Below, piece after piece: positions 3,645-64,000 of a stretch of DNA of 64,000 bases; within the stretch, counting starts at the first letter, position 1, and each line of letters starts with the position of its first letter. Source of the DNA: Centroberyx gerrardi (lineage: Eukaryota; Chordata; Actinopteri; Beryciformes; Berycidae); contig NC_136012.1 in assembly GCF_048128805.1 (NCBI RefSeq), forward strand, positions 10,858,225 to 10,922,224, in the 5' to 3' direction. The translations under genes and the position numbers were made by a program. The notes below the pieces were generated by a model. It saw nothing but the letters and a program-made list of their open reading frames with translations, did no database searches and was not told where the DNA came from.

Positions 3645-6053
3645 CTGCAGAGTGGAGGCTGCTGAGTCGCTAGTCTCTGTCATTCCTGTGCTCCTTGGTA
3701 AACTGGACACGATGTACCTGGAGCCCTTTGGCACAGGCTGTCTAACCACCAGCTTTCCTTTCCTGGTCTCCGCTAGAAACAGACTGTACCAGTAGGCATC
3801 GTTGGAGACCAGAGTGGAATCTGCGATGGTGGAGTTCCTCTCACTGATCACACTGTTCCTACAGGGAGGAGCCGCTTTGCTGGGTTTGGGTTTCTGACAC
3901 TTGAGCACGATGGTGACCAAAATGGTGATCAATAGCAGAAAGGACACCGAGCCCAGACCGATGACCAAATACAGGTTTAAGTCTGAAAAGATGTCATATT
4001 CCAGAGGCACTTCCGTCATGTCAGAGTAGGCCTTAACGGCAGTCTCCACTGTGGACAGCTTGATGGTGACTGTAGCAGAGAGAGCAGGCTCTCCGTTGTC
4101 CTTGGCAACAACAACCAGTCGTTGGTGACGCGGATCTCTGTAACTGAACATTCTCATAGTCCGGATCTCTCCGTTGTATTGGTCCAGACTGAATAAGGTG
4201 GCGTCAGTCACCTGTAGAAACTGGTAGGTAATCCGAGAGTTCTGTACCGAGTCGGTGTCTATGGCTATCACCTTGGCAATCAGAGAACCTTTATCGGTGG
4301 ATCTGGGGATTTTTTCCTCCACCAGCGAACCGTGCGCGCGCCATGGAGAGACAATGACAGGGGTGTTATCGTTCTGGTCCACAATGATGATGTGGACGGT
4401 CACGTTACTGCTGAGTGGAGGAACACCAGAGTCTCTGGCCTCAATGTGGAAAAGGAACTCCTTCTCGATCTCATAGTCAAAGGTCTTTAGTGCGTAAAGA
4501 TTACCGTTCTCTGGATTGATGGAGAACAGCATGGACATGGAGGTGTTGGCTATCTCCTTCTCTAGGATGAAATAAACTAGATACTGGTTTTCATGGAGGT
4601 CTGGGTCAAACGCAGTGAGTGAACTTAGCAAAGCCCCAGGTGCGTTATTCTCCACGACGCGGATAGTATAGAAGGACTGAGGGAACTGTGGAACATTGTC
4701 ATTAACATCCAGCAGTTCTAAAGTCATAGTTTCATTGTCAGACAACGGAGGAGAACCTCTGTCTGTAACAGTGAAAGTGATGTCATATTCTGGAACTTTC
4801 TCACGGTCTAATGGTTCAGAGACTACCAACTCAAAATAGTTATCAGAGGATTCTTTAAGTTTGAAAGGCATATTATCGGGAATATGGAGATCAACTACTC
4901 CATGATCACCTGAATCTTTATCATTGACACTAACCACTGCTATCACTGTGTCTAATTCGATGTTTTCCTTGACTGGACTCTGAAACGATTTAATAGATAT
5001 TTCTGGGTGATTGTCATTCATATCTTCAACTAGAATTGTTAGTTTACATTGCTCTGCTAAGCTATTGGCTCCTTTATCTGTTGCAATAACTTCCATGTCG
5101 TAGATCCTAAAATCTTCATAATTTAACATTCCCTTTACCGTTATCTCTCCGGTGCTGGGGTTAAGATGAAATGTCTCTTGCGTTTTCTCTGATGTATACA
5201 GACTATATGAGTATATTATATCAGAATTTGAACCCTCGTCTAAGTCTGTTGCATTTAGATGAACAACAAGGCTTCCAATGGGAGAATTTTCCATTATATT
5301 GATGTGGTAGTTGTCTTTGTCAAATGTAGGGGCGTTGTCATTAGTGTCTAAAACATGAACAATAACGCTGGCAGTACCAGAACGAGCAGGTGTACCGCCA
5401 TCTACAGCTGTGAGTATTAAATTATGAACAGCCTGCTGCTCTCGGTCCAAAGACTTCTTTAAAATCAAATCAGCAAACTTCGACCCATCTCTCCCAGTTT
5501 GAACTTCAATGGTAAAATGTTCACTTTCACTCAGATGGTACGTTTTTACTGAATTGCTTCCAACATCTGGATCAACGGCGTTGCTCAAAGAGAATCTCTC
5601 CCCAGCTGGCGTTGACTCAGATATATCTAAATGTATTGCGTCTCTTCGAAATTGTGGGGCGTTGTCGTTCATATCCAAAATTTCTAGCTCTATATTAGAT
5701 ATTCGTAAGGGATTTTCAAGGATTACCTCCAGCTTTAGATAGCACGATGTCGAAGACTTTGTAGTGCAAATATATTCCCTGTCAATCTTCTCCACAATAT
5801 AGAGTTCACCAGTCTCTTTGTTCACATCCAAATATTTTTTATTGGCGATGATATCAAGACGCATCTTTCTTTTACTCAGTGTTTTAACATCCAAGCTGAG
5901 ATCTGTAGCTAGATTGGCGACAACTGATCCTTCTTTCATTTCCTCGGGTATTGAATAATGAGTGACTGAAGACGATATGTGCTGAACGGTTGCAAAAAGA
6001 ATAACGACCGACACGTACCTTTTCCATGACAGCATTGTTACATACGACCCCAT
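3645..6053 (-). CDS. Gamma-type clustered protocadherin variable exon, unit 2
   Basis: 803 codons from the ATG at 6053 to CAG at 3647-3645, then a GTAAGAG donor, which is a different intron start from the GTGAGAC of most units. An in-frame ATG 14 codons upstream (6095) exists, but I chose 6053 because MGSYVTMLSWKRY begins a normal signal peptide (about 1-29) and is shared with unit 4. EC1-EC6, TM about 694-717 and the common tail are all present. The EC1 cysteine loop is lengthened to C-x7-C (CTTKSSTSC). The upstream 370 nt are nearly identical to those of unit 4, indicating recent duplication or conversion of the promoter and signal-peptide segment. The EC4-to-tail part is nearly identical to the other units. 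Role as for the family: one alternative ectodomain, chosen by promoter activity, spliced to a common tail. Confidence 0.93.
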
Positions 6054-6486: not shown

Positions 6487-7758
6487 TGGTCGCACTTTAT
6501 TTTACGGTACACTAATAAGACGTAACAAGCCGTACTTTGTATCAAATTAGACAAAAACTAGAAATAATATGTTCTTTATTAGACAGTTAATAAACACAGT
6601 TATACCCTAATTAGACAACATTCACCTAAATTATGCTGTAATTAGAAGCCGCATATAATACCGTATTAGACCCAAAATATACTATACTTAGACACTATTA
6701 TACCAAATTATACTCTAATTAGAAACCAAATAGGATATCTTAATACACTATTAGACACCATTTTACAAGATCATAGTCTCTACTTTAGTTTACAGTACAG
6801 TTCTGTTGTAATGTGTCCCAAATTACCCTCTAAGAAAGTCTAATAAGGGTCTAACAGTGGGAAATAATACACTTTAGTTTACGGTACAGTTCTGTTGTAA
6901 TGTGTCCCAAATTACCCTCTAAGAAACTCTAATAAGGGTCTAACAATAATAAATAAATAAAGATGCAATGTCCTGGCAGCTTCCATAGCCTAATGTTACT
7001 GGGGTCGGATAGTGACATGGCATTAAATGGTCTTAACTGGTATGGGAGTAGAGCGTCGAGGAAGCATGTATTATGTATTACGCTATGTATTACTACCTAC
7101 AAACTCCACGGGACTCCGGAGAACATCCAGGCTACGAGGGACGTGTGAAGTAGCGACCAGATGTGGTTTGACTTTATGGTACAGTTAGCTTCTAATGAGC
7201 AACAAATGACCCTGTAAGAAAGTGAAACTATGTTAAATAAAGGCTAAATAAATGTATTGTCCTCTGAGCTCTCAGTGTTTTGTCTATTATAAAGGCTATG
7301 TCCGATATAATATGGCATTACATTCGTCTAATTACAGCCTGTGTTGTCTAATTAAGCTATCATTGGTAGCATTAAATGTGGTGTCTAATTACAGCATAAT
7401 TTGGTAGTATAGCGTCTAACTAGAATATTTTGGATCTGATATGGCATTGTATTTGATTTCTAATTAGACTATGATCTTGTAAAATGGTGTCTAATAGTGT
7501 ATTAAGATCTCCTATTTGATTTCTAATTAGAGAATAATTTGGTATAATAGTGTCTAAGTATAGTATATTTTGGGTCTAATACGGTATTATATGCGGCTTC
7601 TAATTACAGCATAATTTAGGTGTATGGTGTCTAATTAGGGTATAACTGTGTTTGTTTACTGTCTAACAAATAACATATTATTTCTAGTTTTTGTCTCATT
7701 TGATACAAAGTACGGCTTGTTATGTCTTATTAGTGTACCGTGAAATAAAGAGCGACCA
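6487..7758. mobile_element. 1.27-kb foldback/MITE DNA transposon with long inverted arms
   Basis: Ends are TGGTCGC...GCGACCA, with inverted arms of about 290 bp (6487-6780 and 7466-7758) that pair with few mismatches. The insertion is flanked by the 6-bp direct repeat TAAAAA (6481-6486 and 7759-7764). Paralogous spacers near 10800 and 13845 show the uninterrupted sequence TTGATAAAA(A)CA, so empty sites exist inside this window. The centre carries a partial tandem duplication (about 6782-6858 and 6871-6945) and a decayed third copy near 7170. No transposase ORF is seen, so it is non-autonomous. Superfamily not assigned. Confidence 0.9.
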
Positions 7759-7967: not shown

Positions 7968-10376
7968 CTGCAAAGTGGAGGCTGCTGACTCGCTAGTCTC
8001 TGTCATTCCTGTGCTCCTTGGTAAACTGGACACGATGTACCGGGAGCCCTTTGGCACAGGCTGTCTAACCACCAGCTTTCCTTTCCTGGTCTCCGCTAGA
8101 AACAGACTGTACCAGTAGGCATCGTTGGAGACCAGAGTGGAATCTGCGATGGTGGAGTTTCTCTCACTGATCACACTGTTCCTACAGGGAGGAGCCGCTT
8201 TGCTGGGTTTGGGTTTCTGACACTTGAGCACGATGGTGACCAATATGGTGATTAAGAGGAGAAATGACACCGAGCCCAGACCGATGACCAAATACAGGTT
8301 TAAGTCTGAAAAGATGTCATATTCCAGAGGCACTTCCGTCATGTCAGAGTAGGCCTTAACGGCAGTCTCCACTGTGGACAGTTTGATGGTGACTGTAGCA
8401 GAGAGAGCAGGCTCCCCGTTGTCCTTGGCAACAACGACCAGTCGTTGGTGACGGGGATCTCTGTAACTGAACATTCTCATAGTCCGGATCTCTCCGTTGT
8501 ATTGGTCCAGACTGAATAAGGTGGCGTCAGTCACCTGTAGAAACTGGTAGGAAATCCGAGAGTTCTGTACCGAGTCGGTGTCTATGGCTATCACCTTGGC
8601 AACCAGAGAGCCTTTATCGGTGGATCTGGGGATCTTTTCCTCCACGACCGAGCCGTGCGCGCGCCATGGAGAGACAATGACAGGGGTGTTGTCGTTCTGG
8701 TCCACAACAATGATGTGGACGGTCACGTTACTGCTGAGTGGAGGAACACCAGAGTCTCTGGCCTCAATGTGGAAAAGGAACTCCTTCTCGATCTCGTAGT
8801 CAAAGGTCTTTAGTGCGTAAAGATTACCGTTCTCTGGATTGATGGAGAACAGCATGGACATGGAGGTGTTGGCTATCTCCTTCTCTAGGATGAAATAAAC
8901 TAGATACTGGTTTTCATGGAGGTCTGGGTCGAAGGCAGTGAGGGAGCCCAGCAAGGCCCCGGGTGCATTATTTTCCATTACACGTATAGTGTAGAAGGAC
9001 TGGGGGAACTGTGGAACATTGTCATTAACATCCAGTAGTTCTAAAGTCATAGTTTCATTGTCAGACAACGGAGGAGAACCTCTGTCTGTAACAGTGAAAG
9101 TGATGTCATATTCTGGAACTTTCTCACGGTCTAATAGTTCGGAGACTACCAACTCAAAATAGTTATCAGAAGATTCTCTAAGTTTGAAAGGCATATTTTG
9201 GGGAATATGGAGATTAACCATTCCGTTATCACCTGAATCTTTATCACTGACACTTACCACTGCTATCACTGTGTCTAATTCGATGTTTTCCTTGACTGGA
9301 CTCTGAAATGATTTTATAGATACTTCTGGGTGATTATCATTCATATCTTCAACTAGAACTGTTAATTTACATTGCCCTGATAAGCTATTGGCTCCTTTAT
9401 CTGTTGCAATAACTTCCATATCGTAGATCCTAAAATCTTCATAATTTAACATTCCCTTTACCGTTATCTCACCGGTGCTGGGGTTAAGATGAAATGTCTC
9501 TTGCGTTTTCTCTGATGTATACAGACTATATGAGTATATTATATCAGAATTTGATCCCTCGTCTATATCAGTTGCATTTAGATGAACAACAAGGCTTCCA
9601 ATAGGAGAATTTTCCATTATATTGATGTGGTAGTTGTCTTTGTCAAATGTAGGGGCGTTGTCATTAGTGTCTAAAACATGAACAATAACGCTGGCAATCC
9701 CAGAACGTGTAGGTGTACCGCCATCTACAGCTGTGAGTATTAAATTATGAACAGCCTGCTGCTCTCGGTCTAAAGTCTTTTTCAAAATCAAATCAGCAAA
9801 CTTCGACCCATCTCTTCCAGTCTGAACTTCAATGGTAAAATGTTCACTTTCACTCAAATGGTACGTTTTTACTGAATTTGCTCCGACATCAGGGTCAACT
9901 GCGTTGCTCAGAGAGAATCTCTCTCCAGCTGGTGTTGACTCAGATAAATCTAAATGTATTGCGTCTCTTCGAAACTGTGGGGCGTTGTCGTTCATATCCA
10001 AAATTTCTAGTTCTATATTAAATATTCGCAATGGGTTTTCGATTATTACCTCAAGCTTTAGATAGCAGGATGTTGACGACTTTGTATTGCAGATATATTC
10101 CCTGTCAATCTTCTCTACAACATACAGCTCACCAGTCTCTTTGTTCACATCGAGATATTTTTTATTGGCGATGATATCAAGACGCATCTTCCTTTTACTC
10201 AGTGTCTTAACATCCAAGCTGAGATCTGTAGCTAGATTGGCAACAACTGATCCTTCTTTCATTTCCTCGGGTATTGAATAATGAGTGACTGAAGACGATA
10301 TGTGCTGAACGGTTGCAAAAAGAATAACGAGCGAAACGTACCTTTTCCATGAGAGCATTGTTACATACGATCCCAT
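7968..10376 (-). CDS. Gamma-type clustered protocadherin variable exon, unit 3
   Basis: 803 codons from the ATG at 10376 (MGSYVTMLSWKRY, same start as unit 2) to the CAG before the GTGAGAC donor. The open frame extends 32 codons further upstream with no signal-peptide logic, so the internal ATG is preferred. EC1-EC6, TM about 694-717 and the shared tail ending ASTLQ are visible. EC1 loop is C-x7-C (CNTKSSTSC). Local oddities: SELLDREK in EC4 where other units have SEPLDREK, and MVNLHIPQN where others read VVDLHIPDN. Its 3' flank (7765-7967) matches those of units 4 and 5. The spacing to unit 2 (4323 nt between ATGs) is long only because of the 1.27-kb transposon; without it the unit is 3045 nt. 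Confidence 0.93.
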
Positions 10377-48944: not shown

Positions 48945-51625
48945 CTGCAGGAAAATAATGTGTTATTTAGTTGCAATTTATTCATAATTACAAGGTCCAT
49001 AAGTAAAGACACACAATCTGGGGGACTACTCAGGTCAATTTTGAGAAAATGTCCTCTCCAATAGGAAGTAATAATGAAGTCAGTTTTGATAACAAACAAT
49101 GGCTGTTGTGCCTCTCCGCATATATCAATAATAATCAGTGATAATTGATACAGGGAACAATTTCTCATTGTGTTTGCGCTGAAATGGAAACATGATTATT
49201 TTCAGGTGGATCGTGACTGCCGCCCTGTGGATGTGTAGCAGAATAGATTTTTAAAGAGCGTCGTCGGAGCGGAGGTGGTGCTCCATGCCTTGAGCAACGG
49301 CTCGCCTGTCACTTAATTTTGCTTTCATCCGCTGCGGCGCAGCGGGAGGGGCGAAGGAGAGCTCCCGAGTGATATTTATTCCGGGTCTAAGTCTCATAGT
49401 ATGGATTCCACGCTCTATTAATTCACTTAAAGTTGTTAACAAGGAGAATGCGACGTAAGCGTATTATTAGAATCGGTATTCAAAATACATTCCTCGCCAG
49501 CTACGCACAAAAACCAATTAGAACCCCACCGGGATGAAACGAAACATGATTTTAATCTTCAAAGGAAACCGTGCCAGGGAGGAAATTAAGAAAATTATAC
49601 ACGTAATTGTTTTGTGGATTTTATGCATCATTTTACATTAATATTTGCCTGATGCTCCTCGAGCAAGCTTTTTAATTAAAAGTCTCACCGAGGGCCCACA
49701 AAAGTTTGCGGCCCTTGCAGCTTTACACACAATGTAGGACAACTCAACGTGCATACAACTTTCCATACACCATCACACGCGCACAAGCACGCAAACACGC
49801 ACATACAGGTGCGCGCATCTGTCCTGCGTGCTCTGCGCGCTCGAATGTGTTTAATCTCTCCTTTAAGATTCAATTCATCCGCCTATATGGGCCTATATAC
49901 TTGTTTTCTTTAATGACCAAGTAGTTTCTATGGTTTGTCTTTGAGAGTTAATGTGTCACTTGACGACCTGATGTGCGCACATCTAATATGACTCATGTGG
50001 GGAAACTGAGGAAGACCACCGGGTGAATTAAGGAAGCCAATTAACGTCAGGAAGGACAGTCTCCCCTTGAAGGGCTATAGCTGCAAGCAGAACAATCACC
50101 GTGACCTCGAAATCTTTCTCTCTTTATGTGGCCAGAGGTGTATGTGCCAGTGACCGGACTGACATTTCTCAGTCTGCCTGGTGGATTCTGGTATCCCGAA
50201 TCTCAGTCACTGTCCCCCTGCGTTTTGCTGAAAACACTGAGATGACAATGAGCAATACGCACACATTTACGGTCTGCTGGACCCGTCTATTGGATTTAGG
50301 AAACAGTAGTGTCGACATCCTGCCTCCGTGAATTCCCTCTCTCCTTGTCTCCCTCCTTCCTCCCCCCTTCCATCCCACCCCTCCTCTTTCCCATCCTCGC
50401 TCGACAAATATGAAGCCACATCTCCCTCTCCTCGCATTCAGAGGACAACGCTGGGGCCGATCTACAGGCGCGCCACGTCCCAGCCAGGTCCTTGCCCCCT
50501 CCTCCTCCTTGCCCCACCTCCTCCTCCTTGCCCCCTCCCCTCGTCTCGATGTCCTCCCCTGTCTCCCCAAAAACGGCCCTTTGCCATTTTTCATCAATAA
50601 TGGACTGCCCCCCTTGCGTATACGCCACATTGTGTGCAGTATAATGGCTCGGTCGTGCCTGTGCCCTTGAGGCATAGTTAGTGAGGTTATCTGTCCTATA
50701 TTGTTAGTTTGAGCACAAGAAGACGTATCCTATTGTCGCAAACCCGACTGGTCGCAGATGAATAGCCTGGACCCAAGGCAGTTGAATTCAAACAACTGCC
50801 ATTCACCTTGCCTGCGATAACCTTGACTTTTTGTTCAAACTCAGGTAGAATGTGTTCACAATGCTGGGGTCAGGTTAATAAAACAGCTGCCTGTCTCCGC
50901 ATTGCATGAGGTGGGATAAGTCTATGTGGCAATGACACTGGATGATACAGATATGAATATACTGTATATCGCTCACAATCTTACAAACATCTTAAATGAA
51001 GTTCATGAATTGTTATGAAAATCTTTTGAAAACATGGAGAATGTCTGTAATAACGGGTCCCGAAGAGACCTGGAATTGTTAACAGGACTGCAGAGAGGAA
51101 TCAACTTGAACACCAGTACAGGGTTTGACTATCTCATCTCTGCCTTTCACCCAGAAACTGATATCTCACTTCATTCTGCAAAAGAGAAAAGATATGCGCG
51201 GAGCATATGCTCGTTGGAAGACACGGGCTATACACGCTTTCATTAACATGTAAATTCATCTGTGTTTTCATATCATCTCATTTATTTCCCTGGTGCAAAA
51301 CATTAACATACGCTATACAATTAGGATAAATTATTGCCATAATTATGAATCAGTGGAAACGAGATGGACATAGGCTATAACCCACTTCTTATCAAGACTA
51401 GGAAAGAGAGGGACAACCATCGTGCAGTTTTGTTCAGTATTTTGCTTAAGTTCAGTTTAAATCAGTCTCGCATGCGTGATTTGACCTTCATAAGGGAATG
51501 TCACGCTCTAAATCCTTATCAGATAAACTAATCGGAGATTGATTTCGCTGTGACAGTGGGGGGATTTGAATGATTAAAATGACCGATACGCTCTCACTTC
51601 TCGGTATAGACTGATTTCACTATAC
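48945..51625 (-). other. Intron between the alpha-type large exon and constant exon 1
   Basis: 2681-nt intron, GTATAG...CTGCAG. It contains CG-richer, repeat-poor blocks (49250-49700 and 50340-50640) without protein-coding support; the polypyrimidine-rich 50330-50600 tract yields Pro/Gly-rich ORFs on both strands that I regard as composition artefacts. Possible conserved non-coding DNA. Confidence 0.6.
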
Positions 51626-54148
51626 CTCATTGGGAGTGGTAGCTCCGTTGTTCACAGATGCGCTCCGGCTTTGCGCGTTCCACGAGTTATCTGCGCTCTT
51701 CGCCTCATTGTTCCTCGGTGTGCTGCTTGGGCTGCACGGCTTCAGGAACATAAAGTCACTTTTGGCCGATTCGGGGGTCAGGCACACTTTATAACAATAG
51801 GACTGGGAGAGGCTGCTATTGCCATTCACTTCCATGCAGTTCGTGGGCACTTTGGCCGCGGTTGAAATCTGCAGGTTGAGGTTGGATTTCTTGAACACCT
51901 CCGGGGGCGGCTCGGGCTGAAACCCCCCGCAACAGCAGCAGGCGAACGGGGGGAGGTTGTATCCGCTGAGGGTCTCCCTGTCCTTGTAGCACTTGACCGC
52001 AGCCAGCACGATAATAGCCACCAGGAATATTAGAGAGATTGTGCTCAGTGACACGATCAAGTAGAGAGCGAGGTTTGAGGGGGGCTGTGGGCTCAGAGTG
52101 AGGTCACCGAAATCTGACAGCGACTCGGGCACGCTGTCCACCACGGAGAGGAGGATGGAGACGGTAGCGGAGAGCGGAGGCTGCCCGTTGTCCTTCACTA
52201 ATATGACCAGTCTCTGCCTTGTTGCGTCTTTTTCCACTAACCGGCGAATAGTCCTGATTTCCCCCGTGTATAGAGCCACGCTAAACAGACCCGGATCCGT
52301 AGCCTGTAGCACCTGATAGGACAGGCGGGAGTTTTGCCCTGCGTCCGCGTCTAACGCCGTGATTTTGGCAACCAGATATCCAGCGTCTACCGACCGCGGG
52401 ACCACTTCTGTGGCCACGGTCCCGTTTTTGGGTAGCGGAGATACAACAACCGGAGCGTTATCATTCTGGTCCAAAACAAAGACGTTGACAGTGACGTTAC
52501 TGCTGAGAGGGGGGAAGCCGGCGTCCTGCGCCTGGACAAGGATCTGAAAGTTTCTAAGCTGCTCATAGTCAAAGGAGCGTAGAGCATAGATATTGCCGTT
52601 GTCAGAGTTGATGGAGACATAAGTGGACACGGGCATGCCCTGGATCTGACCGTCCAGAATAGAATAAGACAGATAGGCGTTCTGGTTAGAATCGGGGTCG
52701 AATGCAGTTACTGAGCAAATGGAAGCGCCCGGGGCATTATTCTCGGTCACATAAACTGTGTAGGAAGGTTGAGAGAACCGTGGGGGGTTGTCGTTAATGT
52801 CTGACACTTGAACGAGGATGGTTTTCCTCGTGGAGAGCGACGGAGATCCCAAGTCGCGCGCCGTAAGGGTGATGTTGTACTCGGACACCGCTTCCCTGTC
52901 CAAAAACTCGCTGGTCACCAGAGTATAATAGTTTTTAAAGGAGGAGTGGAGCTGAAAGGGGACGTTGCTGGGAATTTGACAATCAACGTTTCCATTCTCT
53001 CCCGAGTCCCGGTCCATGACACTGATGACGGCTATCACCGTGCCCGGTGGCGCGTCCTCCTGGACGGGAGTGGACACTGATGTGAGGATGACTTCGGGCG
53101 CGTTATCATTCACGTCCAGAATGTCTACCAGCACTTTACTATGCACGGCCACAGCCGAGGGACCCCTGTCTCTCGCCTGCACATACAGCTCATATACACT
53201 GGCTTTCTCATAGTCCACAACACCCTTCACTCGGATCTCACCCGTATACGGGTCCACACTGAACAGCTCACGCACCTTGAGTGGAGCGTGCCCGCTGAAC
53301 GCATAGGTCACCTCCCCGTTCGAGCCCTCGTCCAGATCGGTGGCATTCAGTTTCAGCACTAGCGTCCCCCTCGGTGCGTTCTCCACCAGACTCGCTCGGT
53401 AAACGGACCGATCAAATACGGGCACGTTGTCGTTTGCGTCTAACACCGTAATAGTTATCAATGCAGTCCCAGAGCGTTCCGGGGAGCCCCCGTCATAAGC
53501 AGTCAGCACCATCTCGTGCTTCTTCTGCTGCTCCCGGTCCAGCGGGGTGTCCAGCACGAGCTCAGCAAACTTGCTTCCATCGTTGCGCGTCTGGATATTC
53601 AGCACGAAGTGCTCGTTTGCGCTTAGCTGGTAGGAGCGGAGAGAGTTGGTGCCCACGTCCTGGTCCTGTGCGCTCTCTAATGGGAAACGGGAGCCGGGCG
53701 CAGCCGACTCGGTGATGTCAAGATTAAACTCGCTCCATGGGAAGCTGGGAGAGTTGTCGTTCACATCTAAAATCTCCACCTCCACTCTATACAGTTCTAA
53801 CGGGTTTTCAATGACCACTTGCAAGTGTAAAAAGCAGTTCGGGCTCCGTTCACACAGGTCCTCTCTGTCAATCTTTTCGTTGACAAATAAAATGCCATTC
53901 TCCAAGTTCACTTCTAAATACTGCTTCTTTGCGCCCGAGACTATACGGAACCGACGCGCTGACAGCTTGGCCACATCCAAGCCCAAGTCTTCGGCGATGT
54001 TCCCCACAAACGCTCCATGCTCTAGTTCTTCGGGAATGGAGTACCGAATTTGCGCAAGAACCAGATCCACTACACACGCACAGAATAGCAGACACACCAC
54101 CAGCCCAGTCACCGGTGCCCAACTGCCTCTCGAGAGCCTGTGGTCCAT
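51626..54148 (-). CDS. Alpha/C-type clustered protocadherin, large exon
   Basis: 841 codons from ATG at 54148 to GAG|GTATAG. Signal peptide 1-32 ([13 protein letters not shown]), then [22 protein letters not shown]1-EC6 with DxNDNxP linkers; CX5C loop CERSPNC in EC1; TM about 695-718 ([12 protein letters not shown]); tail with a cysteine cluster (ACCCCGG) and [22 protein letters not shown] and tail features are shared with C-type isoforms such as alphaC2 and gammaC5, and with delta-2 protocadherins (PCDH10-like). Followed in phase by three constant exons, giving a 1004-aa protein. Transcriptionally upstream of the gamma array, as the alpha cluster is in vertebrates. No other alpha variable exon lies within the 10 kb to the right. 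No CSE found upstream, as is usual for C-type promoters. A stand-alone delta-2-like gene remains the alternative. Confidence 0.85.
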
Positions 54149-54479
54149 TTCAGCGGCGCGCGTAAAAACCCCTCACCCTGACATCATTCAAAGGGATTTG
54201 CTTGTTTTTCATAAAGCACAGCTAAAAAGTAAATCTAGGAGCACAGTTTGCCCCAAATAAGATCTTTAGATATACTTTTGTAGAATCTATGTATATACAA
54301 AGTCAAGCATGGATAACTTCTCTGGATATAAACTGAGGAGACGAGAGAGGAGAGTGAAAGCGTCTCTCTCCCTCTCTGTTGTGCTCCCCGCGCGCAGCAC
54401 CGGTGGTGTGTGAACGGGGGAGGCTCGCTCTTTGATTTTCCAGTGTATTAGACACTCGGAGGAGCTGGTGGGGAGGTGT

Positions 54480-54495
54480 GCGTGTGCGTGTGCGT

Positions 54496-54561
<66 letters not shown>
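54480..54561. repeat. (TG)n(GA)n microsatellite upstream of the alpha-type exon
   Basis: CGTGTG repeats pass into pure TG and then GA, about 330-410 nt upstream of the ATG, so probably within or just beyond the promoter. Confidence 0.95.
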
Positions 54562-54562
<1 letters not shown>

Positions 54563-55600
54563 GAGGGGGTGGACGTGGCTTCTCGCTGCTTGGTATTGGA
54601 GGACGCCGACGCGAGAGGCGCGACTCTAATTACTGTAGATGTTTAACCCTTTCATATCCTCCTCCTGTCTAGCCTTGCCTCTGACCCATTAAAGCCGAGA
54701 AAACGTAACTTTGAGCCCAGACATCAGGGCCAGATTTGGATTAGGGGATAAATTGCTTTTCATCGAGGGTGTCGTTTTCTAGGCAGTATTGCGTCCAGCA
54801 TATAACGCTGGATAAGGATTTCTCTTGGTGACCACACTGCCTTACAGGCCTATAATGGCAATAGAAACATTACACAGTGCTACACAGAATACATTAAAAA
54901 TAACTAGGCCTATGCGCTCATTCGCTGTGCCTCAGTCGGGCCAGTGGCCAGTAGGCTCGTGGGATTCCAAAATGCTTTTTAATGAGAGTCCTTTGAAGAT
55001 GAATGCCCACATTGCACAAACAGCCCCATTCATTAATCATCAAACACAAATTTGGGTTTTACAAAAAGAATCCTTGATGGGTCAGGATATTCAATTTTAA
55101 TCGATATTTAAAAGAGTGTGAGCTATATTTTGGAGCTTAAAATGATTAGAGTGACAATCATGAGAGCGCGATACACTCATACAAATACGCATTACACGAC
55201 TTTAATTCGCATAAGTAGACCTGAACATGTATCAACATAATCAACATAAAAGCAATGTCATAAAACCATAATCATACTTGACATAATCAAGTATTATAGT
55301 TGGGATTAAATAGAAATCCCATAGGTGGTGTATTTACAGCTGTGATTATTACAGTTTCGTGGAGATGATGACATAAAAGGGCACGGTGAATGCTGGGAGC
55401 TGTTTGCGCAGACTCAATCTTTGAATGGACAAAGCGATTTGAATAGACGTAAGTACAAGCGAATGACTTTATTGGATCAGAGAGCACCAGTTATTGTTTT
55501 GATAAGACAAAGAGGACAACTTGGGCCTCTTAAGAGTGCGGCACATGTTTGTTCAGATCTAATCTTTTCCCTGTTAATCCTGGTCAGTTAGACAACCACT
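54562..55600. other. Upstream region of the alpha-type gene, no gene seen
   Basis: No ORF with a domain, no second protocadherin exon on either strand, no mobile-element termini identified. Confidence 0.5.
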
Positions 55601-55602
55601 GA

Positions 55603-55732
<130 letters not shown>

Positions 55733-55855
55733 AAAGGATCCCTCTGTGAATTCGGCTTCGTCTCTCGACAGACACGAGTGGCATCCTAATGTGACACTGT
55801 GGCTTGAGATCTGAAAGTCTCCTCTTGGGGCCGACGACACCGCCTTGGCCCCCGG

Positions 55856-56325
55856 GCAGTGTTGGGCTTGTTACTCAAAAAAGGAATGCATTTTTCATTA
55901 CTCGTTACTCATTTCAAAGGTGGTGTCACTTACTGCCTCCCGGGAGCAGCGGTTGGTTACACTGCACGTTACTTTAGGTTACTTTTCCATTACACCCTCC
56001 AAACTGGCGATGCGTCCTCTACACCTTGAAAAAAGTCCTGGGAATCCTTTCACTTTAAGAAAGTAGGCCTAAGTTATTTCTGCCATTTCTCGTCTAAGAT
56101 ATCTCAATTTGAGTGGACGACGACTAATTATGATGAAAATGAATGAGGTGATTTTTAGATAGTGCATCTTCAGTCTGGTATTTAGGCCTAGATGTGTGAT
56201 AACAAAAGCCAAGACTTCCTTATGATCGGTAACCGCACAATTACCACTGAAACTGAAATAGCAATTCGTTACAATGCTCGTTACTGTGAAAGTAATGGTA
56301 TTGCTGTAACGCGTTACTTGGTATT
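55856..56325. mobile_element. hAT-like MITE (CAGTGTTGGG family), degenerate right end
   Basis: The left end GCAGTGTTGGGCTTGTTACT and the interior (ATTACTCGTTAC, TAACGCGTTACT) are characteristic of a common fish MITE. It is flanked by the 8-bp direct repeat GCCCCCGG (55848-55855 and 56326-56333). The right terminus stops at CGTTACTTGGTATT instead of the expected CCCAACACTG, so the end may be eroded. Confidence 0.65.
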
Positions 56326-56868
56326 GCCCCCGGGGACCAAAAGTAGGCCTTAACTGTTCCCGACCTCTCCTCTCACGAGCATCCCCCGAAACGCAACACC
56401 CCACCCCCTTTTCAGGAAAAAAGTAAAATCCCCAGGTTTAAATAAGCAGAAAACACAATCTGCTCGCAGACTTAACCTCAAGCAGATGGTTAAGCTTCTC
56501 CAGAAATGATTACATTTCTGGAAAAAAAAAACACACACCACCACCAGTTCCATTGCTTTCCCCGTCTTTTTAATTAACGGAGTGAAGGATTAGTGTGCAG
56601 CTATCCGGGATCAACCGTTCTCCGCCGGAAGAATACAAATGTTTTGTGATAAATAATCCCAAAGCACTCCGTTGAATGTACCGTCCGGCGGTCCCCCGGT
56701 GCCTGTTACATTAACATGCATTACACGGAGCATTAAGCCGGTCTCATCCGCCCCTATCGCCTCGCTCACCCCATTGTCCGACAGTAAAACAACCATTACT
56801 TTCTGTGAACTACCGCTCAGTCTCACCAACAGTCACCTGACCGTGACCCGTCACACCACTCACTAAGG

Positions 56869-56870
<2 letters not shown>

Positions 56871-56934
<64 letters not shown>

Positions 56935-56957
56935 CTGTGTGTGTGTGTGTGTGTGTC
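56871..56957. repeat. (GT)n microsatellite
   Basis: Three GT runs separated by GTAG and GTCT interruptions. Confidence 0.97.
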
Positions 56958-57198
56958 ACAGGGTGACGAACAGGGTGGTGTTAAGTAGAGGACTTGTTGA
57001 AAACCTTTGAAGTATTCTTGAAGTATTTTCTGTAATTTTCACAACTGAAAACACATTGATTCCATGTAATTCAATGTAAATGGAATCAATGTGTTTTCAG
57101 TTGTGTCAGGTGAAAATTACAGAAAATTACATTAGATTTAATCCCATACTTGCAATGGACACAATATAGGAAATTTCTCTTTTCATTCGTGATCTTAT

Positions 57199-57213
57199 GG
57201 CGCCATCTACTGG
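57199..57213 (-). promoter_or_regulatory. CTCF-like motif
   Basis: The minus strand reads CCAGTAGATGGCGCC, a perfect CCASYAGRKGGCRS match. It lies in a 45-nt block that recurs at about 59565-59610, so it may be carried by a repeat. Confidence 0.5.
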
Positions 57214-58716
57214 GTACTGGGAGCTACTATAAAAACATGAGGGAGTGGAAATTGTCACACGTTTTAGTCTCAATGACATCTCTCAGCAACAGGATTGTTC
57301 AGTAATTGAAGGGTTTCATTCAAAAACTATAATTTGGGGAGAAAATGCCTGCTTCTCATTTCGTAACACTCAAACAGATGATTACATTGTCTGAAATGTC
57401 GCGAGTTGGAAAGCAAGGGACACTCATAACTTGATACATAGCCTATTTATTCTAAAATTGAATTGTATTTTCTAGCCAGCAATCATTTTGTTGGAGTAGG
57501 TGTCACCTTTGTAAATGGTGAGTATCTCATTTTGGAATGAAACTCCTTCCATTTTATTTCCAATAAGTATTAATAACCAAGAGTGTCATTGTTCACTCAT
57601 TGTTCAGACAGACATTTTGCTAAATAAGAGGTGTGCACTTGCAGCCATTGAGTGTGGGGTTTTTCATCTCACATTATCTGACCTGGAATTGAAAAATGCT
57701 GGCCATACTACAAGAACGTTTAATTGACAATTATGTTTTGTCAAAACCCTATGAGCCATTCCTCAGTCGGCTTCCTAACATTTGATCCTAACATGAATAA
57801 GAAAAAGGACAATTCCAGCATGATTAATAAATGGCTCTAATATTTAATAATAGAATTAATATATACATCATTATGTGATTATTTGTTTGATAATATATTG
57901 ATAGTTATCTGTTTGATTTAATTGGTTCAGTGTATGATGTAATCACCAACCCATGGATACTGGATACTAAACTTGCATTAATAGCTGAGAAACACATCCA
58001 AACATTGCTCTCTCTTTCTTTTAGTGTTGGCTGATAATCACTTGTTACTAATGTAGCCCAGCTACTCGAGCACTTAAGGGGACCCTCTCAAGTAACCTAA
58101 TCCCTCTGAGATAGAAAACTTCTCAATGCAGGTCAAGAGGGGCTTAGCTGTATAGACCAATCTGACTGCCCAAGAGGAAAACATTTAGTTCATTGTTTCA
58201 AATACTGGGAGATAACTAAGTAGCCTACTTCTACTCAAGTACAGTTTGACATACATTGTTCATAAAAATGTTGCACTTCTTGACTTTGAGTCTGCAAAAC
58301 TGGACCACCCGCAACTTTATGTTTTCTTCCTCTCCATAAAATCATAAGACATTTGCTTCCTTCTCTTATCCAATCTGTGAAGAAAAAATGTCTGGAGCTC
58401 CTTCTGATGAAAAACAACTGCCAAAATTCTGAGATACCAAACCTAGATCTGTTTCACTCATCTCAAATTTTTACACCATATTTTACACCGTATGATTACT
58501 TTGGGTCTGAAATGGGGCACATTTTTAAAATAGCATGGCAAACTATCAATAAAGTGATTCTCAAAATGCCTCTTCACTTTCAGCAGCCTAGTCCCATTTC
58601 ACATGCCATTGTACAAAACTCACCAGAAATGAATTTTTAAAAGCAGATTTACAAAATAATTCTCCCCGGGGGAGCATCTTGCCCCCGGACCCCTCCTAGT
58701 ATTTTTGGGAAGTGCT
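57214..58716. other. Spacer without recognised genes
   Basis: AT-rich, small ORFs without domains. No splice-bounded exon or element end identified. Confidence 0.4.
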
Positions 58717-58886
58717 GTTTTAAAGATTATTTTTATGGCATTGTTGCTTTATTAGACAGTTCACAGTGAAAAGAGACAGTAAACATGGGAGAAAGGGGAT
58801 GTTACAAAGCAACAAAGGCCGATTTAGAACCCAAGACGTTGCATGGTAGGAACTTTATAGTCAACTGAGCCACCGGGACAATCCAG
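58717..58886 (-). mobile_element. tRNA-derived SINE, teleost type
   Basis: The minus strand starts with a tRNA-like head: GTCCCGGTGGCTCAGTTGAC (A box TGGCTCAGTTG) and GGGTTCTAAATC (decayed B box). It continues CCTTTGTTGC...ACATCCCCTTTCTCC...CTGTC and ends AATAAAGCAACAATGCC followed by an A-rich tail. This head-body-tail order matches a widespread teleost SINE. Confidence 0.75.
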
Positions 58887-59250
58887 AAGTTGCCCTTTTA
58901 GAGTTTTTGCCCCTGCCCCTTTCAGAGTCTATGCGCCACTGATTTAATTTAGACCTGCATAACTGTCTACTGTAGGTAGAGATATAACAATGGGTAGAGT
59001 GAAACTTTAATCAAAATCGTCATTTGATACCTTTTCTTACGGTGCTAATTAAAAGATTTCACCTTTTTTCCAAACCTCATCAAAGACCCTTAGAAATCCA
59101 TGACGACATTATGACGAGCCATACTTAACCATAACGACAGTAATTTGAGTCACCCGCAAAATCATCAAAGGGAGCGCATTCCAAAAGTCGCAAACATAAA
59201 GACAAAATAGCCTACACGTCACAATAAAAAATAACAATGGGTTGAGAAAA

Positions 59251-59345
59251 GCACCAGGCAGCGCCCGTAGATTTGAACCTCCCTGCAGTGTTTCATACAT
59301 GGGAAGCCTGAGTCATGAGAAGTAGCCACTGAGCTAAACTGGTGC
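59251..59345 (-). ncRNA. tRNA-like Pol III unit, copy 1
   Basis: 95 nt on the minus strand. The ends GCACCAG and CTGGTGC pair perfectly (7 bp). Then TT, a D-arm-like hairpin TAGC-TCAGTG-GCTA (A box TAGCTCAGTGG), a non-canonical central part, B-box GGTTCAAATC, the shared block CGGGCGCTG, the 3' strand of the stem, and TTTT immediately after. No canonical anticodon arm is found, and the B-box-to-acceptor distance is about 7 nt longer than in a tRNA. Not an ordinary tRNA gene; function unknown. Confidence 0.55.
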
Positions 59346-59580
59346 AGAATCGAAGGGCATAAAACTACACAAAGTACCTCTTCCACTGTAAGAGGAGGCT
59401 TTGTTCTAGGCCAAGGGTTCACAAACCTTTCCATACCAAGGACCCAAGCAATGTGTCCAATCCAAGGTTCATAAGGTTCTGTTTGTAACACAATGTGCGA
59501 ATCAGAAGCCCTTCTAAACAAATACATTGTTTATGTACAAAGGGATTTAGTGTATTTTGCTTTTTCATGAGTGATCTTAG

Positions 59581-59595
59581 TGCGCCATCTACCGG
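59581..59595 (-). promoter_or_regulatory. CTCF-like motif in repeated block
   Basis: The minus strand reads CCGGTAGATGGCGCA, about two mismatches from consensus; its flanks resemble those of the site at 57199-57213 (GTGATCTTA upstream on the plus strand in both). Confidence 0.4.
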
Positions 59596-60060
59596 ATTTT
59601 GATGGGCTATAAGCATACGGTTACTATGGCCACAGTATGCGAACACAGTGTAGGTGCCTAAGCATTGGATAGTTAAATGTACTGTCTGATACATGTTAGG
59701 AAGAATAGATTCCGCATAGCCTATCGCTATTGTTGCTACAGAAACTTCATATATCTTAAAAAAAAAAAAGAAAAAGAAAAAAAAAGGTAAACCTGAATTG
59801 CCTCCCATTTTTCTCATTTTTTTAACATTTACAACAGACGTTGTTTCCTTAACTTCGTGTCATGGTGATAAAACATGTCTAGACTCATTTGGACTTTTTT
59901 TTAACAAACGGAAATTGAGGATTTGAGGTTTCTGCAGGACACTCGGAGTTGACACTTGAATATTATTCAAATTATACAAATAGCCTACTTCATAGGCCTA
60001 TATGCTATTTAGAATAATACCACAGAACAAAAAGATGAAAATAAGAACGAGGAAAAAAAG

Positions 60061-60161
60061 ACACTGGACAGCGCCCGTGGTTCGAACCCCTAGCCCGCGG
60101 ACCATTGGGGTTTGATATCCGGGTAAACTGATGAGAAGTAACCATTGAGCTAAACCAGCGC
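60061..60161 (-). ncRNA. tRNA-like Pol III unit, copy 2
   Basis: 101 nt on the minus strand. Ends GCGCTGG and CCAGTGT pair over 7 positions (two G-U). Then TT, D-arm-like TAGC-TCAATG-GTTA, B-box GGTTCGAACC (perfect), the shared block CGGGCGCTG, and a terminator CTTTTTTT directly after the stem. Shares TTTAGCTCAATGGTTACTTC and CCGCGGGCT with copy 3. Internal region has palindromes CCGCGG and GATATC but no anticodon stem that I can draw. Confidence 0.6.
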
Positions 60162-60348
60162 CGACACACTATGACACAGAAGTGCTTTATGTAGCTATCA
60201 CTCCCAACCTAGTACTACGTCACTGAGGGCAGAACCAAAGTGAGGAAGTGAAACTGAAGCATTGAAGGACTCACTTGGAGATTCCAGATCCTAGATTCCT
60301 ATATTCACCAGCTAATACTCTTTCTTTAACCCGTATTTTATGATAATT

Positions 60349-60350
60349 AA

Positions 60351-60391
<41 letters not shown>

Positions 60392-60660
60392 GTAGTAGTA
60401 GTAGTAGTAGGAGTAGGCCTAGTAGTAGGCTAGTGGTGGTAGTGGTAGTAGCAGCAGTAATAGTGATAGTAGCCTAGTAGCAGTAGTCTAGTAGTAATCC
60501 TAGCAGTAGTAGTAGCCTAGTAGTAGTAGTAGTAGTAGTTGTACTAGTTGTACTAGTTGGCCCAGTAGTAGAAGTAGTGGTAGCAGCAGTAGTACTTGTA
60601 GTGGTAGCCTAGTTGTTGTAGTAACCTAGTAGTAGTAGTAGTAGTAGTAGTAGCAGCAGT
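60349..60660. repeat. (ATT)n/(TAG)n trinucleotide repeat array
   Basis: ATT repeats pass into TAG/TAGTAG with AGCAG, CCTAG and GTGG interruptions over 300 nt; a second short block of the same kind is at 61320-61380. Confidence 0.9.
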
Positions 60661-60683
60661 ATTAGTGGTAGTAGCAGTAGGCT

Positions 60684-60850
60684 ATCAAGTCAAGTCAAGC
60701 AGATTTATTGTAATTCATATACAGTGCACAGTATATAGACGAACGAAATGTCGATACTTCGGGACCACAGCAACAGGACAATACAATGCAATACAATATA
60801 CAAGACTACAATACTCTACACAACATTTAAGTTACATTTATATTCATGAC
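60684..60850 (-). mobile_element. 3' fragment of a retroelement with (ACTTG)n tail
   Basis: The minus strand reads ...CATTTCGTTCGTCTATATAC...ATTACAATAAATCTGC followed by TTGACTTGACTTGAT, resembling the 3' end and short tandem tail of fish LINE/SINE families. No coding part remains. Confidence 0.4.
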
Positions 60851-60879
60851 CATGTAAACCTGGTATAATAATTACAATA

Positions 60880-61250
60880 TATTATATATGAATATATGTA
60901 TATATATATATACTGTATATATATTTCTATTCTATTCTATACTCTATATTATAGTATATATATTAGGCCTATATTACATTATCATTAATATTATATGATA
61001 TTTATTATATATGTATATATACTGTATATATAAATATAATATATTAATGTAGTAAATAGAATATATTATATAATGTCATGTAATATACTATAATATAGAG
61101 TATAATATATAATAGTGTATAATGTATAATGCAATATATAATGTGACATAATAAATATGGTATATTACATACAATACAATGTAATAGAATAGAATAGAAA
61201 TAATAGAATAGAAATAAATAATATAATATTCTGCTATGAAATAAATATAC
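60880..61250. repeat. TA-rich imperfect palindrome
   Basis: TTCTATTCTATTCTATACTC (60926 on) on the left is matched by inverted ACTATAATATAGAGTATAAT and AATAGAATAGAATAGAA on the right, with TATATA in between. Potential cruciform; expanded AT microsatellite is the simplest origin. Confidence 0.6.
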
Positions 61251-61596
61251 AACAGTATAGTGTATAAAGTGTAGGTTATGTGTGCTATAGCAGTAGGCCT
61301 ATTATAAGTTGTAGCACTAGTATTAGCAGCAGCAGCAGTAGTAGTAGTAGCAGTAAAAGTAGTAGCCTAAAGTAGTAAAAGAGAGGAAACGTACTCTCAC
61401 TGTTTTCCTATATGTCTCAGGTAATTTCTTGTTCAGCTGATTCGGAGCTATATATGGACATACCGTTTTGCCGTGATATTTGGTATCCTTCTAAAATGTA
61501 TTAAACGATTATTATAGGATAGCTCTTTTTCATTAGGGAGATCACCAGCCCCAGAGAAAGGGAAATAGTGGGATGACTACAACAATAAGAGAGAAA

Positions 61597-61689
61597 ACAT
61601 CGGACAGCGCCCAGGGTCGAACTCTACAGCCCGCGGTCCGCAGCGTGGAAACGTCAGTGTAAGAAGTAACCATTGAGCTAAGCCGATGT
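61597..61689 (-). ncRNA. tRNA-like Pol III unit, copy 3
   Basis: 93 nt on the minus strand. Ends ACATCGG and CCGATGT pair perfectly (7 bp) though neither matches the ends of copies 1 or 2. Then CT, D-arm-like TAGC-TCAATG-GTTA, central GGACCGCGGGCTGT, B-box-like AGTTCGACCC, the block GGGCGCTGT and TTTTC at the end. Same strand as copies 1 and 2. Confidence 0.58.
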
Positions 61690-61869
61690 GCAGATATCAT
61701 GCACATTACTGCTATATATACCTGACCGAGTTATTGCGACATCGTACCAAGAAGTGACTGGTCTGCACATCCCTCACAGTGATTAGACAGTTAAGTTCCC
61801 AACTGAAAAGTAATCCGTATATCTAGGTTGACGCGTGGGATAAGCTTAAACCTAATTTAAACATGCACA

Positions 61870-61950
61870 AAAAAGTGTTTGGTTTGATACCATACAGTCC
61901 GCCGTCCGGTGAAATCGCTACAGAGGAAGTAGGCTGAGCTGAAGCAGGCG
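61870..61950 (-). pseudogene. Decayed fourth copy of the tRNA-like unit
   Basis: The plus-strand segment ACAGTCCGCCGTCCGGTGAA and then GAAGTAGGCTGAGCTGAAG aligns with copy 3 (ACAGCCCGCGGTCCG...GAAGTAACCATTGAGCTAAG). The B-box is changed to GGTATCAAACC, the GGGCGCTG block is missing, and the ends no longer pair. Confidence 0.4.
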
Positions 61951-62353
61951 CAGGAAGGACAGGCGCTCTACTTCCTGACTGAAGTGGCTTATGTGGAGTT
62001 CTCCACTCTTACTCAGGTCGAATGCCAGACAGCAAACAAAAATCTATTCTACTCATAGAAAAGCGTTAATTTCCTCCTTTTTGCTTGATATAACTTACAT
62101 CAGTTTGATAATATTGACTATCGATGTAGGCCCTACCATACGTTTATCTTAAAATCATATTAATGTCAGTTTAAAAAGATAAACTATTCCGCAATTTCAA
62201 AAATGACTTTAGGTGAGTTTACCCCCCACTAAATACCCGGATTTAACAGGATTTAATATGTGCTTAGCAAAGTAATAGGTGTCTTGTGTTGACACTGATA
62301 ATCCACTAGGAGGGGATAAAGACCAAGAAAAGACAGGCAAGCCAGTAAACAAT

Positions 62354-62499
<146 letters not shown>

Positions 62500-62659
62500 T
62501 TCAGCAGTCTTATTTGGATGCCCTGGTGATTAAGGTAATGGACTTGAGTGGAGGTCTATATCTAATATGAAGTATGCATAAGGATCAGCGGCAACATCCA
62601 CTGGATATACATGTGCAGCGTTTTTAAGCAGCCTAGTATATGAACCGCCTGTGTCATTG

Positions 62660-62710
<51 letters not shown>

Positions 62711-62730
62711 GGGGTGGGGGTGGGGGGGGG
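62660..62730. repeat. (GT)n/poly-G microsatellite
   Basis: GT dinucleotides followed by GGGGTGGGGG; about 160 nt right of the (TC)n(CA)n tract. Confidence 0.95.
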
Positions 62731-63853
62731 GATTGAAGGCGTGTGCATGCATGGCCCCTATGGGGAGATAACTTTTGATTACTACAGCAGATGTTAGAGA
62801 GAGAGAGAGAAAGAGAGAGTCTATGATTAAGAGTTAGCCTGATAAAAAGAAAGCAAGGGGGAAGGAAAGGTAGAGGAGGGACAAAAAGAGCAACAACACA
62901 CAAAGACAGGGATGTAAAAAGAGTGATGGAAGGGAGGGAGGAGAGAGGAGGAGAGAGTTCCACCCATGTTGCTCTTCACCTCAACACCCCCTGCCGTTTC
63001 CATTATAACCTGCTGCACTGTAGCCACCATATCAATCAGTCAGAGAGTTGGGGTTGGAGGGGGGGGGGGGGGGTGAGAAAAGATAAAGGAAGACAAAGAA
63101 AGAAGAGGGAAAAGGTAAAAGACGCACAGTAGCAGAGCAAGTGGTGGAGAGATAGGAAAATGAAGAGGAGAGGGGGAAAGAGAGAGAGAGAGAGAGAAAG
63201 AATAGAAGGTTTGGTCCACATGCTCCTCAGCTGTGTAAACTGAAGTTCTGTGCTGTGTCTCGGATTCCCCCAAAGAAGGGGGATATTTATAGGAGGCTGG
63301 CAGTGGCAGCGAATGGACCCTTGCTCTGTCACACCCGCTAATATTATTATTATTACTTTATATGCGCAAAAATGGAAAATGTCAGCAACCTGAGAGGCCT
63401 GCAGAGACAGCGTGTGTGTGTGTGCGTCTCACTGCCTGTCAGTGTGTGTCTGCCGTTGGTGTGTGTGTGTGCGTGTGTGTGTATGTGTGTGTGTGTACCC
63501 TCATGTTCGTGAGAAAGTGTCTGTTGGTGAGACATAGCATTTATATGAAAGGGGCAAAAGAAAGGAGCGAGAGAACAGAATGAGAGAGAGAACAGAAAAA
63601 CGGGGAGAAGTTGGCATGTATCAAGGGGTGTAACCTGATCTACTGAACTTATTAGAGCTGTCAAAGAATGAGGGAGTGAGAGAAAAGAGAGCGAGTACGA
63701 GAAAAAGAGAGAGAGAGAGAGAGTGAGAGAGAGAGAGAGAGAGAGAGGGGTGGAGCAGGGCTAGACAGACACAGACATGAGCACATATTCCAGCTCCAGA
63801 TTATAAGATTCCCGCAAGTTGCAGACGTGTTGAAACAGACTACACACACACAT

Positions 63854-63897
<44 letters not shown>

Positions 63898-64000
63898 ACA
63901 CACACACACAGGTCCACGTCCACCTGGTAACAGATGCGAACTCAGGCACACATGCAGAAACACAAACAGTCTGATAGACATAACAGACGCGCACGCGCAT
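62731..64000. repeat. Purine-rich, microsatellite-dense tail of the window
   Basis: Contains GA-rich tracts (62797-62820, 63178-63197, 63704-63748), poly-G (63058-63073), (GT)n (63413-63497) and (CA)n (63843-63911). No gene recognised; the long Ser/Leu or His/Thr ORFs are repeat translations. Confidence 0.8.

What the first reader, a model, noticed from the sequence alone, without database searches (positions are those of the whole stretch)
59251..61950. Family of tRNA-like units with covarying end stems upstream of the protocadherin alpha exon
Three minus-strand units (59251-59345, 60061-60161, 61597-61689) share TTAGCTCA[AG]TGG, a B-box and the block GGGCGCTG, and each ends in a T-run. Their outer 7-nt ends differ between copies (GCACCAG/CTGGTGC, GCGCTGG/CCAGTGT, ACATCGG/CCGATGT) yet pair in every copy. 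That is compensatory change, unlike a SINE head, which drifts without pairing. The extra GGGCGCTG between B-box and 3' stem and the lack of a drawable anticodon arm argue against ordinary tRNAs. A decayed fourth copy lacks the block and the stem. This may be an undescribed structured Pol III RNA family.
Basis: partly seen in the sequence, partly recalled or inferred. Interest (0 to 1): 0.82.

Follow-up and report, generated by a model that had tools for sequence, protein, structure and literature searches.

The report
Vault RNA genes beside protocadherins

Summary
All three minus-strand units match the whole Rfam vault RNA model (RF00006; 60, 54.7, 49 bits, gathering score 34). The 'extra' block GGGCGCTG is part of the vault RNA consensus. 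They lie about 5.1 kb upstream of a protocadherin cluster's first large exon, on its strand; human VTRNA1 lies between ZMAT2 and the protocadherins (PMC7058938, passages). The outer stem pairs in 97.4% of cells over 11 genomic copies, with two-sided changes in 4 of 7 pairs. The decayed fourth copy (about 61868-61950) is supported. Genome-wide, 9 of 12 RF00006 rows pass the cut-off: three here, six on C6, C9 and C18 (a lower bound). DNA searches with each window copy found only itself, so a SINE is unlikely. The genome has major vault protein exons. Inferred mechanism: Pol III transcription from internal A and B boxes gives a panhandle RNA of about 100 nt, acting with the vault particle and outside it. 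Transcription and binding were not tested.

The parts
59247..59345 (-). vault RNA gene, copy 1 (nearest to the protocadherin exon)
   Evidence: RF00006 54.7 bits, model 1-99 of 99; own-genome DNA search finds only itself
60057..60161 (-). vault RNA gene, copy 2
   Evidence: RF00006 60 bits, model 1-99 of 99; own-genome DNA search finds only itself
61593..61689 (-). vault RNA gene, copy 3
   Evidence: RF00006 49 bits, model 1-99 of 99; own-genome DNA search finds only itself
61868..61950 (-). decayed vault RNA copy: A-box region and part of the centre kept, GGGCGCTG and the 3' stem lost
   Evidence: alignment score 37 to copy 3 and 28 to copy 2, 0 of 1000 shuffles each, 0 and 5 of 2442 other window stretches; copy 1 not significant. 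Against: not found by RF00006 at E<=10 nor by model R1 at E<=10; folds no better than shuffles
59359..59364 (-). loose TATA-like hexamer TTTTAT upstream of copy 1 (off the usual spacing)
   Evidence: begins at -19; no chance control
60186..60191 (-). TATA-like hexamer CATAAA upstream of copy 2
   Evidence: begins at -30; no chance control
61713..61720 (-). TATATATA upstream of copy 3
   Evidence: TATATA begins at -31 and -29; no chance control
51620..54148 (-). first (5'-most) large protocadherin exon of this cluster, downstream neighbour
   Evidence: 842-aa ORF, Pfam Cadherin, Cadherin_2 and Cadherin_C_2; highest-coordinate match on C16 among the 55 rows (54 of 483 candidates scored)

Best explanation
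A cluster of three vault RNA genes plus one decayed copy. Inferred mechanism: TFIIIC binds the internal A box (TTAGCTCA[AG]TGG) and B box (GTTCGA), helped by an upstream TATA-like element; Pol III makes an RNA of about 94-102 nt ending at the T-run. The ends close into a panhandle (7 outer pairs, then an inner helix that includes the GGGC of GGGCGCTG) around a variable centre. In the cell the RNA would partly join the vault particle (major vault protein, TEP1, vault PARP) and partly act outside it, as mammalian vtRNA1-1 does on p62/SQSTM1. Shown here: family membership by covariance model, covarying stems, promoter motifs, terminators, location, major vault protein exons in the same genome. 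Inferred: transcription, protein binding, function. The confidence below is for the family identity; whether the three copies are active is the nested question of the third rival.
For: RF00006 full-length matches over the gathering score, the only 3 rows in the window; no other row overlaps them in the permissive search of 50000-64000. Nine of 12 genome-wide RF00006 rows over cut-off. Stem covariation. Same strand and about 5.1 kb upstream of the first protocadherin exon. MVP_shoulder matches in three pieces on C7. Literature, passages only: human VTRNA1 lies between ZMAT2 and the protocadherin cluster, with box A and box B promoters (PMC7058938); mouse Vaultrc5 lies downstream of Zmat2, and mouse-human stem differences are compensated or of little impact (PMC11185573); [quoted passage not shown] 12 vault RNAs were annotated in the fish Nothobranchius furzeri (PMC5584509).
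Against: ZMAT2 is not next door: its exons match on C11 near 5.66 Mb, and the 40 kb beyond the window gives no significant match (best E 6.9). TEP1_N was not found (its control rang nowhere, so uninformative). Folding energies of the three copies are only mildly better than shuffles (z -1.63, -1.65, -0.88). Rfam marks 2, 2 and 3 non-standard pairs in copies 2, 1 and 3. The TATA-like hexamer of copy 1 sits at -19. One MVP_shoulder piece reads through one TAA. No expression data.
Confidence: 0.96

Rival explanations
1. An undescribed structured Pol III RNA family.
For: Covarying end stems and conserved blocks are real; ARAGORN calls no tRNA; DNA searches find each copy only once.
Against: All three match the described family RF00006 over its whole length, including the block thought to be extra.
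Confidence: 0.01
2. Heads of a tRNA-derived SINE.
For: A and B boxes resemble tRNA promoters; a SINE-head-like repeat lies close by at about 58795-58885 minus.
Against: Each window copy finds only itself by DNA search, while the same search finds the nearby SINE-head-like repeat in 13 places at 73-86% identity besides itself. Limits: the search did not link the window copies with one another or with the C6 set, so it sees near relatives only, and the tool skips very common words. Paired divergent ends; no common body in the 60 bases downstream (by eye).
Confidence: 0.01
3. True vault RNA homologues that are no longer transcribed, the working genes being those on C6, C9 and C18.
For: The one C6 and one C9 copy tested fold better (z -3.28, -4.52); four C6 copies carry TTTATAA at -31, though the C9 and C18 copies show no such hexamer there; a fourth window copy has decayed.
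Against: The three window copies keep A box, GGGCGCTG, terminators and fully paired outer stems through several two-sided changes, which neutral decay would not be expected to keep.
Confidence: 0.1

Closest known systems
Vault RNA, Rfam RF00006 (human VTRNA1-1/1-2/1-3, mouse Vaultrc5)
   Same: Full-length covariance model match with the GGGCGCTG block, closing stem and T tail; A and B boxes; beside the protocadherin cluster, as in the mammalian VTRNA1 locus.
   Different: ZMAT2 is not adjacent here. Central regions differ from the consensus; the literature passages say the centre varies between species.
Vault RNAs of the fish Nothobranchius furzeri (PMC5584509)
   Same: That annotation lists 12 vault RNAs (passages); RF00006 gave 12 rows here, 9 over the cut-off.
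   Different: Positions and sequences of those 12 were not compared.
tRNA-derived SINE heads and tRNA genes
   Same: A and B box promoter type.
   Different: No tRNA called; no anticodon arm in the matched model; each window copy finds only itself.

Membership tests
Vault RNA (RF00006) | Score above the curated gathering threshold over the whole model | tested here: met
   60, 54.7 and 49 bits against 34, model 1-99 of 99, 3 of 3 copies; the decayed fourth does not match
Vault RNA (RF00006) | Conserved closing stem of the two ends | tested here: met
   97.4% of cells paired over 11 copies; 4 of 7 pairs with two-sided changes
Vault RNA (RF00006) | Internal A and B boxes and T-run terminator | tested here: met
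   the B-box core of copy 1 is GTTCAA, one base off GTTCGA
Vault RNA (RF00006) | VTRNA1 synteny: protocadherin cluster on one side | tested here: met
Vault RNA (RF00006) | VTRNA1 synteny: ZMAT2 on the other side (a feature of the mammalian locus, not of the RNA family) | tested here: not met
   ZMAT2 exons on C11 near 5.66 Mb; no significant match in the 40 kb beyond the window
Vault RNA (RF00006) | Genome encodes major vault protein | tested here: met
   PF11978 in 3 pieces on C7 over the cut-off, one reading through a TAA
Vault RNA (RF00006) | Genome encodes TEP1 | tested here: inconclusive
   PF05386 found nothing and its control rang nowhere; the PF05731 search did not complete
Vault RNA (RF00006) | Pol III transcript; binding to the vault particle | not testable with these tools
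   Needs RNA sequencing, ChIP and co-purification
tRNA | Cloverleaf with anticodon arm | tested here: not met
   ARAGORN 0 genes in the window (bacterial code)
tRNA-derived SINE | Many dispersed copies with a shared body | tested here: not met
   One place each by DNA search; a nearby SINE-head-like repeat is found in 13 places by the same search

The most novel reading that the evidence does not exclude
This genome carries two lineages of vault RNA: the cluster at the protocadherin locus, and a second, more uniform set amplified on C6, C9 and C18 inside few duplicated blocks of about 1 kb, four of which hold a pair of vault RNAs. If both sets are transcribed they could be subfunctionalised, a parallel to the mammalian VTRNA1/VTRNA2 split.
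Probability: 0.25. Interest if true: 0.35.

Novelty: already known. Interest (0 to 1): 0.12.

Why it matters
The covariation argument made from raw sequence led to a genuine structured RNA, and the vault RNA-protocadherin linkage is recorded in this genome. [quoted passage not shown] A genome in which the protocadherin neighbour stays while ZMAT2 lies elsewhere helps to say which neighbour the linkage follows (inference).

Tried and rejected
Undescribed family: rejected by RF00006. Ordinary tRNA: ARAGORN found none. SINE: each copy finds only itself, with the limits told under that rival. Second protocadherin cluster as another vault RNA locus: the C11 cluster (first exon 77% identical) has no match in about 19 kb upstream with model R1, filters off (its only 3 rows, E 3.9-4.8, lie in L015 and L017), nor with Rfam.

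Transposon carriage of the C6/C9/C18 copies: a 502-base query gave 51 rows (40 of 131 candidates scored). The first 13 cover the vault RNA part or a long flank (rows 8 and 9 flank only or nearly so); the other 38 match only a short stretch within query positions 346-481 on many contigs. Block edges were inspected by eye without a clear element structure. Retroelement fragments lie in the same 10 kb as one block. Not settled.

My first alignments held three loci (L005, L006, L010) in the wrong orientation; they were redone, and only one search is used for counts. The block comparison printed was cut at 6000 characters by my own script. Alignment A2 holds 11 of 12 RF00006 rows: L013 was dropped because it equals L012 (read); two of the 11 are below the RF00006 cut-off (L011, L012). 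The structure counted leaves out the innermost five-pair helix of the Rfam model and adds one outer pair; the omitted helix was not tested. Model R1 was built from A2, so its matches to those copies are by construction; three weak rows there (in L025, L021, L023) were not in A2. Stadler et al. 2009 (Evolution of vault RNAs) is not held; I know it only from citing passages and recall. Library searches for vault RNA with protocadherin and teleost gave 0 papers and for vtRNA with teleost 1, unrelated by its title; I make no claim that this linkage in fish is unpublished.

Full report
What is there. On the minus strand at 59247-59345, 60057-60161 and 61593-61689 lie three units of 97-105 bases, tails included. 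They carry TTAGCTCA[AG]TGG, a B-box-like motif, GGGCGCTG and a T-run.

What it is. Rfam's vault RNA model RF00006 matches all three from first to last position at 54.7, 60 and 49 bits (in the order above), gathering score 34. In the permissive search of 50000-64000 no other row overlaps them. The model consensus itself reads gCggGCGCUgUCC at this place, so the block taken as a departure from tRNA is part of the vault RNA consensus, and the model has a long unpaired centre instead of an anticodon arm (alignments).

Covariation. I aligned 11 of the 12 RF00006 rows of the genome (the twelfth, L013, equals L012) and counted a 15-pair structure: the two outer helices of the Rfam structure line plus one more outer pair, without Rfam's innermost five pairs. 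Of 165 cells 95.2% pair; sliding the 3' partner by 1 to 3 columns gives 27.9-53.9%, with 0 to 2 pairs changed on both sides against 5 observed. 0 of 500 shuffles reach the observed cells paired, pairs or cells changed on both sides, or covariation score; the number of pair types is not unusual (119 of 500). The outer stem alone is 97.4% paired with two-sided changes in 4 of 7 pairs; among the three window copies these are pairs 4, 5 and 6 (read). The structure came from the Rfam model, which favours it over slid versions. Folding energies of the three window copies are unremarkable (z -1.63, -1.65, -0.88); those of the one C6 and one C9 copy tested are strong (-3.28, -4.52).

The fourth copy. 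The minus strand at about 61868-61950 aligns with copy 3 at score 37 (0 of 1000 shuffles, 0 of 2442 other stretches) and with copy 2 at 28 (0 of 1000, 5 of 2442), but not significantly with copy 1 (59 of 1000, 59 of 2442). It matches neither RF00006 at E<=10 nor R1 at E<=10, and folds no better than shuffles (z 0.05). I read it as a decayed relative.

Neighbourhood. The units lie on the strand of the protocadherin exons, about 5.1 kb upstream of the one at 51620-54148, the highest-coordinate match on C16 among 55 rows (54 of 483 candidates scored). A second cluster on C11 has a first exon 77% identical but no vault RNA match in about 19 kb upstream. In humans the VTRNA1 locus lies between ZMAT2 and the protocadherin cluster (PMC7058938, passages); mouse Vaultrc5 lies immediately downstream of Zmat2 (PMC11185573, passages). 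That fish vault RNAs sit next to protocadherins is my recollection of Stadler et al. 2009, which I could not read.

Genome-wide. RF00006 gave 12 rows at E<=10, 9 over the cut-off (49 of 35667 candidates scored, so a lower bound): three here; three on C6 at 2.055-2.059 Mb, one on C6 at 4.345 Mb, one on C9 at 30.56 Mb, one on C18 at 2.80 Mb; below cut-off, three more on C6. R1 adds three weaker relatives in L025, L021 and L023. The C6/C9/C18 copies sit in duplicated blocks of about 1 kb, 79-97% identical in the long matching pieces, few in number. Nothobranchius furzeri was annotated with 12 vault RNAs (PMC5584509, passages), so such a number is not odd for a fish.

Mechanism. Inferred from the family: a Pol III type 2 promoter with A and B boxes (PMC7058938 and PMC7904556, passages), an upstream TATA-like element (TATATA at -31 for copy 3, CATAAA at -30 for copy 2, TTTTAT at -19 for copy 1, no chance control) and termination at the T-run. 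The RNA would join the vault through TEP1, which in mice is needed for stable association (PMC7904556, passage); vtRNA1-1 also binds p62/SQSTM1 (PMC7058938, start of abstract in the listing). MVP_shoulder matches lie on C7 in three pieces, one reading through a TAA; TEP1 was not settled. No functional step was tested here.

Verdict. A correct and careful observation of a known RNA family. Interest is low; what stays open is why the protocadherin linkage persists and whether the second vault RNA set is expressed.

Noticed in passing
L021:7496-7597, 8509-8610, 8872-8972; L022:561-662, 924-1024, 7037-7126; L023:5056-5157; L024:4747-4848; L025:4700-4801: Second, more uniform set of vault RNA copies on C6, C9 and C18 in few duplicated blocks; on C6 two copies face each other, and the stretch L021:7381-8725 matches its own reverse complement at 81.3%.
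   Followed up: partly
window 58795-58885 (-): A separate tRNA-like repeat resembling a SINE head (TGGCTCAGTTGA ... GGGTTCTAAATC), 13 places in the genome by DNA search, 73-86% identical besides itself.
   Followed up: partly
G000:C11:5662609-5665981 and G000:C11:18247279-18280844: ZMAT2 and the second protocadherin cluster are on one contig but about 12.6 Mb apart; RF00006 gave no row on C11.
   Followed up: partly
window 60334-61377: Long simple-repeat tract (TAT, TAG, AT and TAATA arrays) between vault RNA copies 2 and 3.
   Followed up: no
window 569-26138 (-): Tandem array of eight large protocadherin exon ORFs whose C-terminal halves look nearly identical by eye, as after recent gene conversion or duplication.
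   Followed up: no
L021:2733-4463 (-): Retroelement polyprotein fragment (RNase H and integrase zinc-binding domains over cut-off, integrase core just below it) near the C6 vault RNA block; observed only.
   Followed up: no
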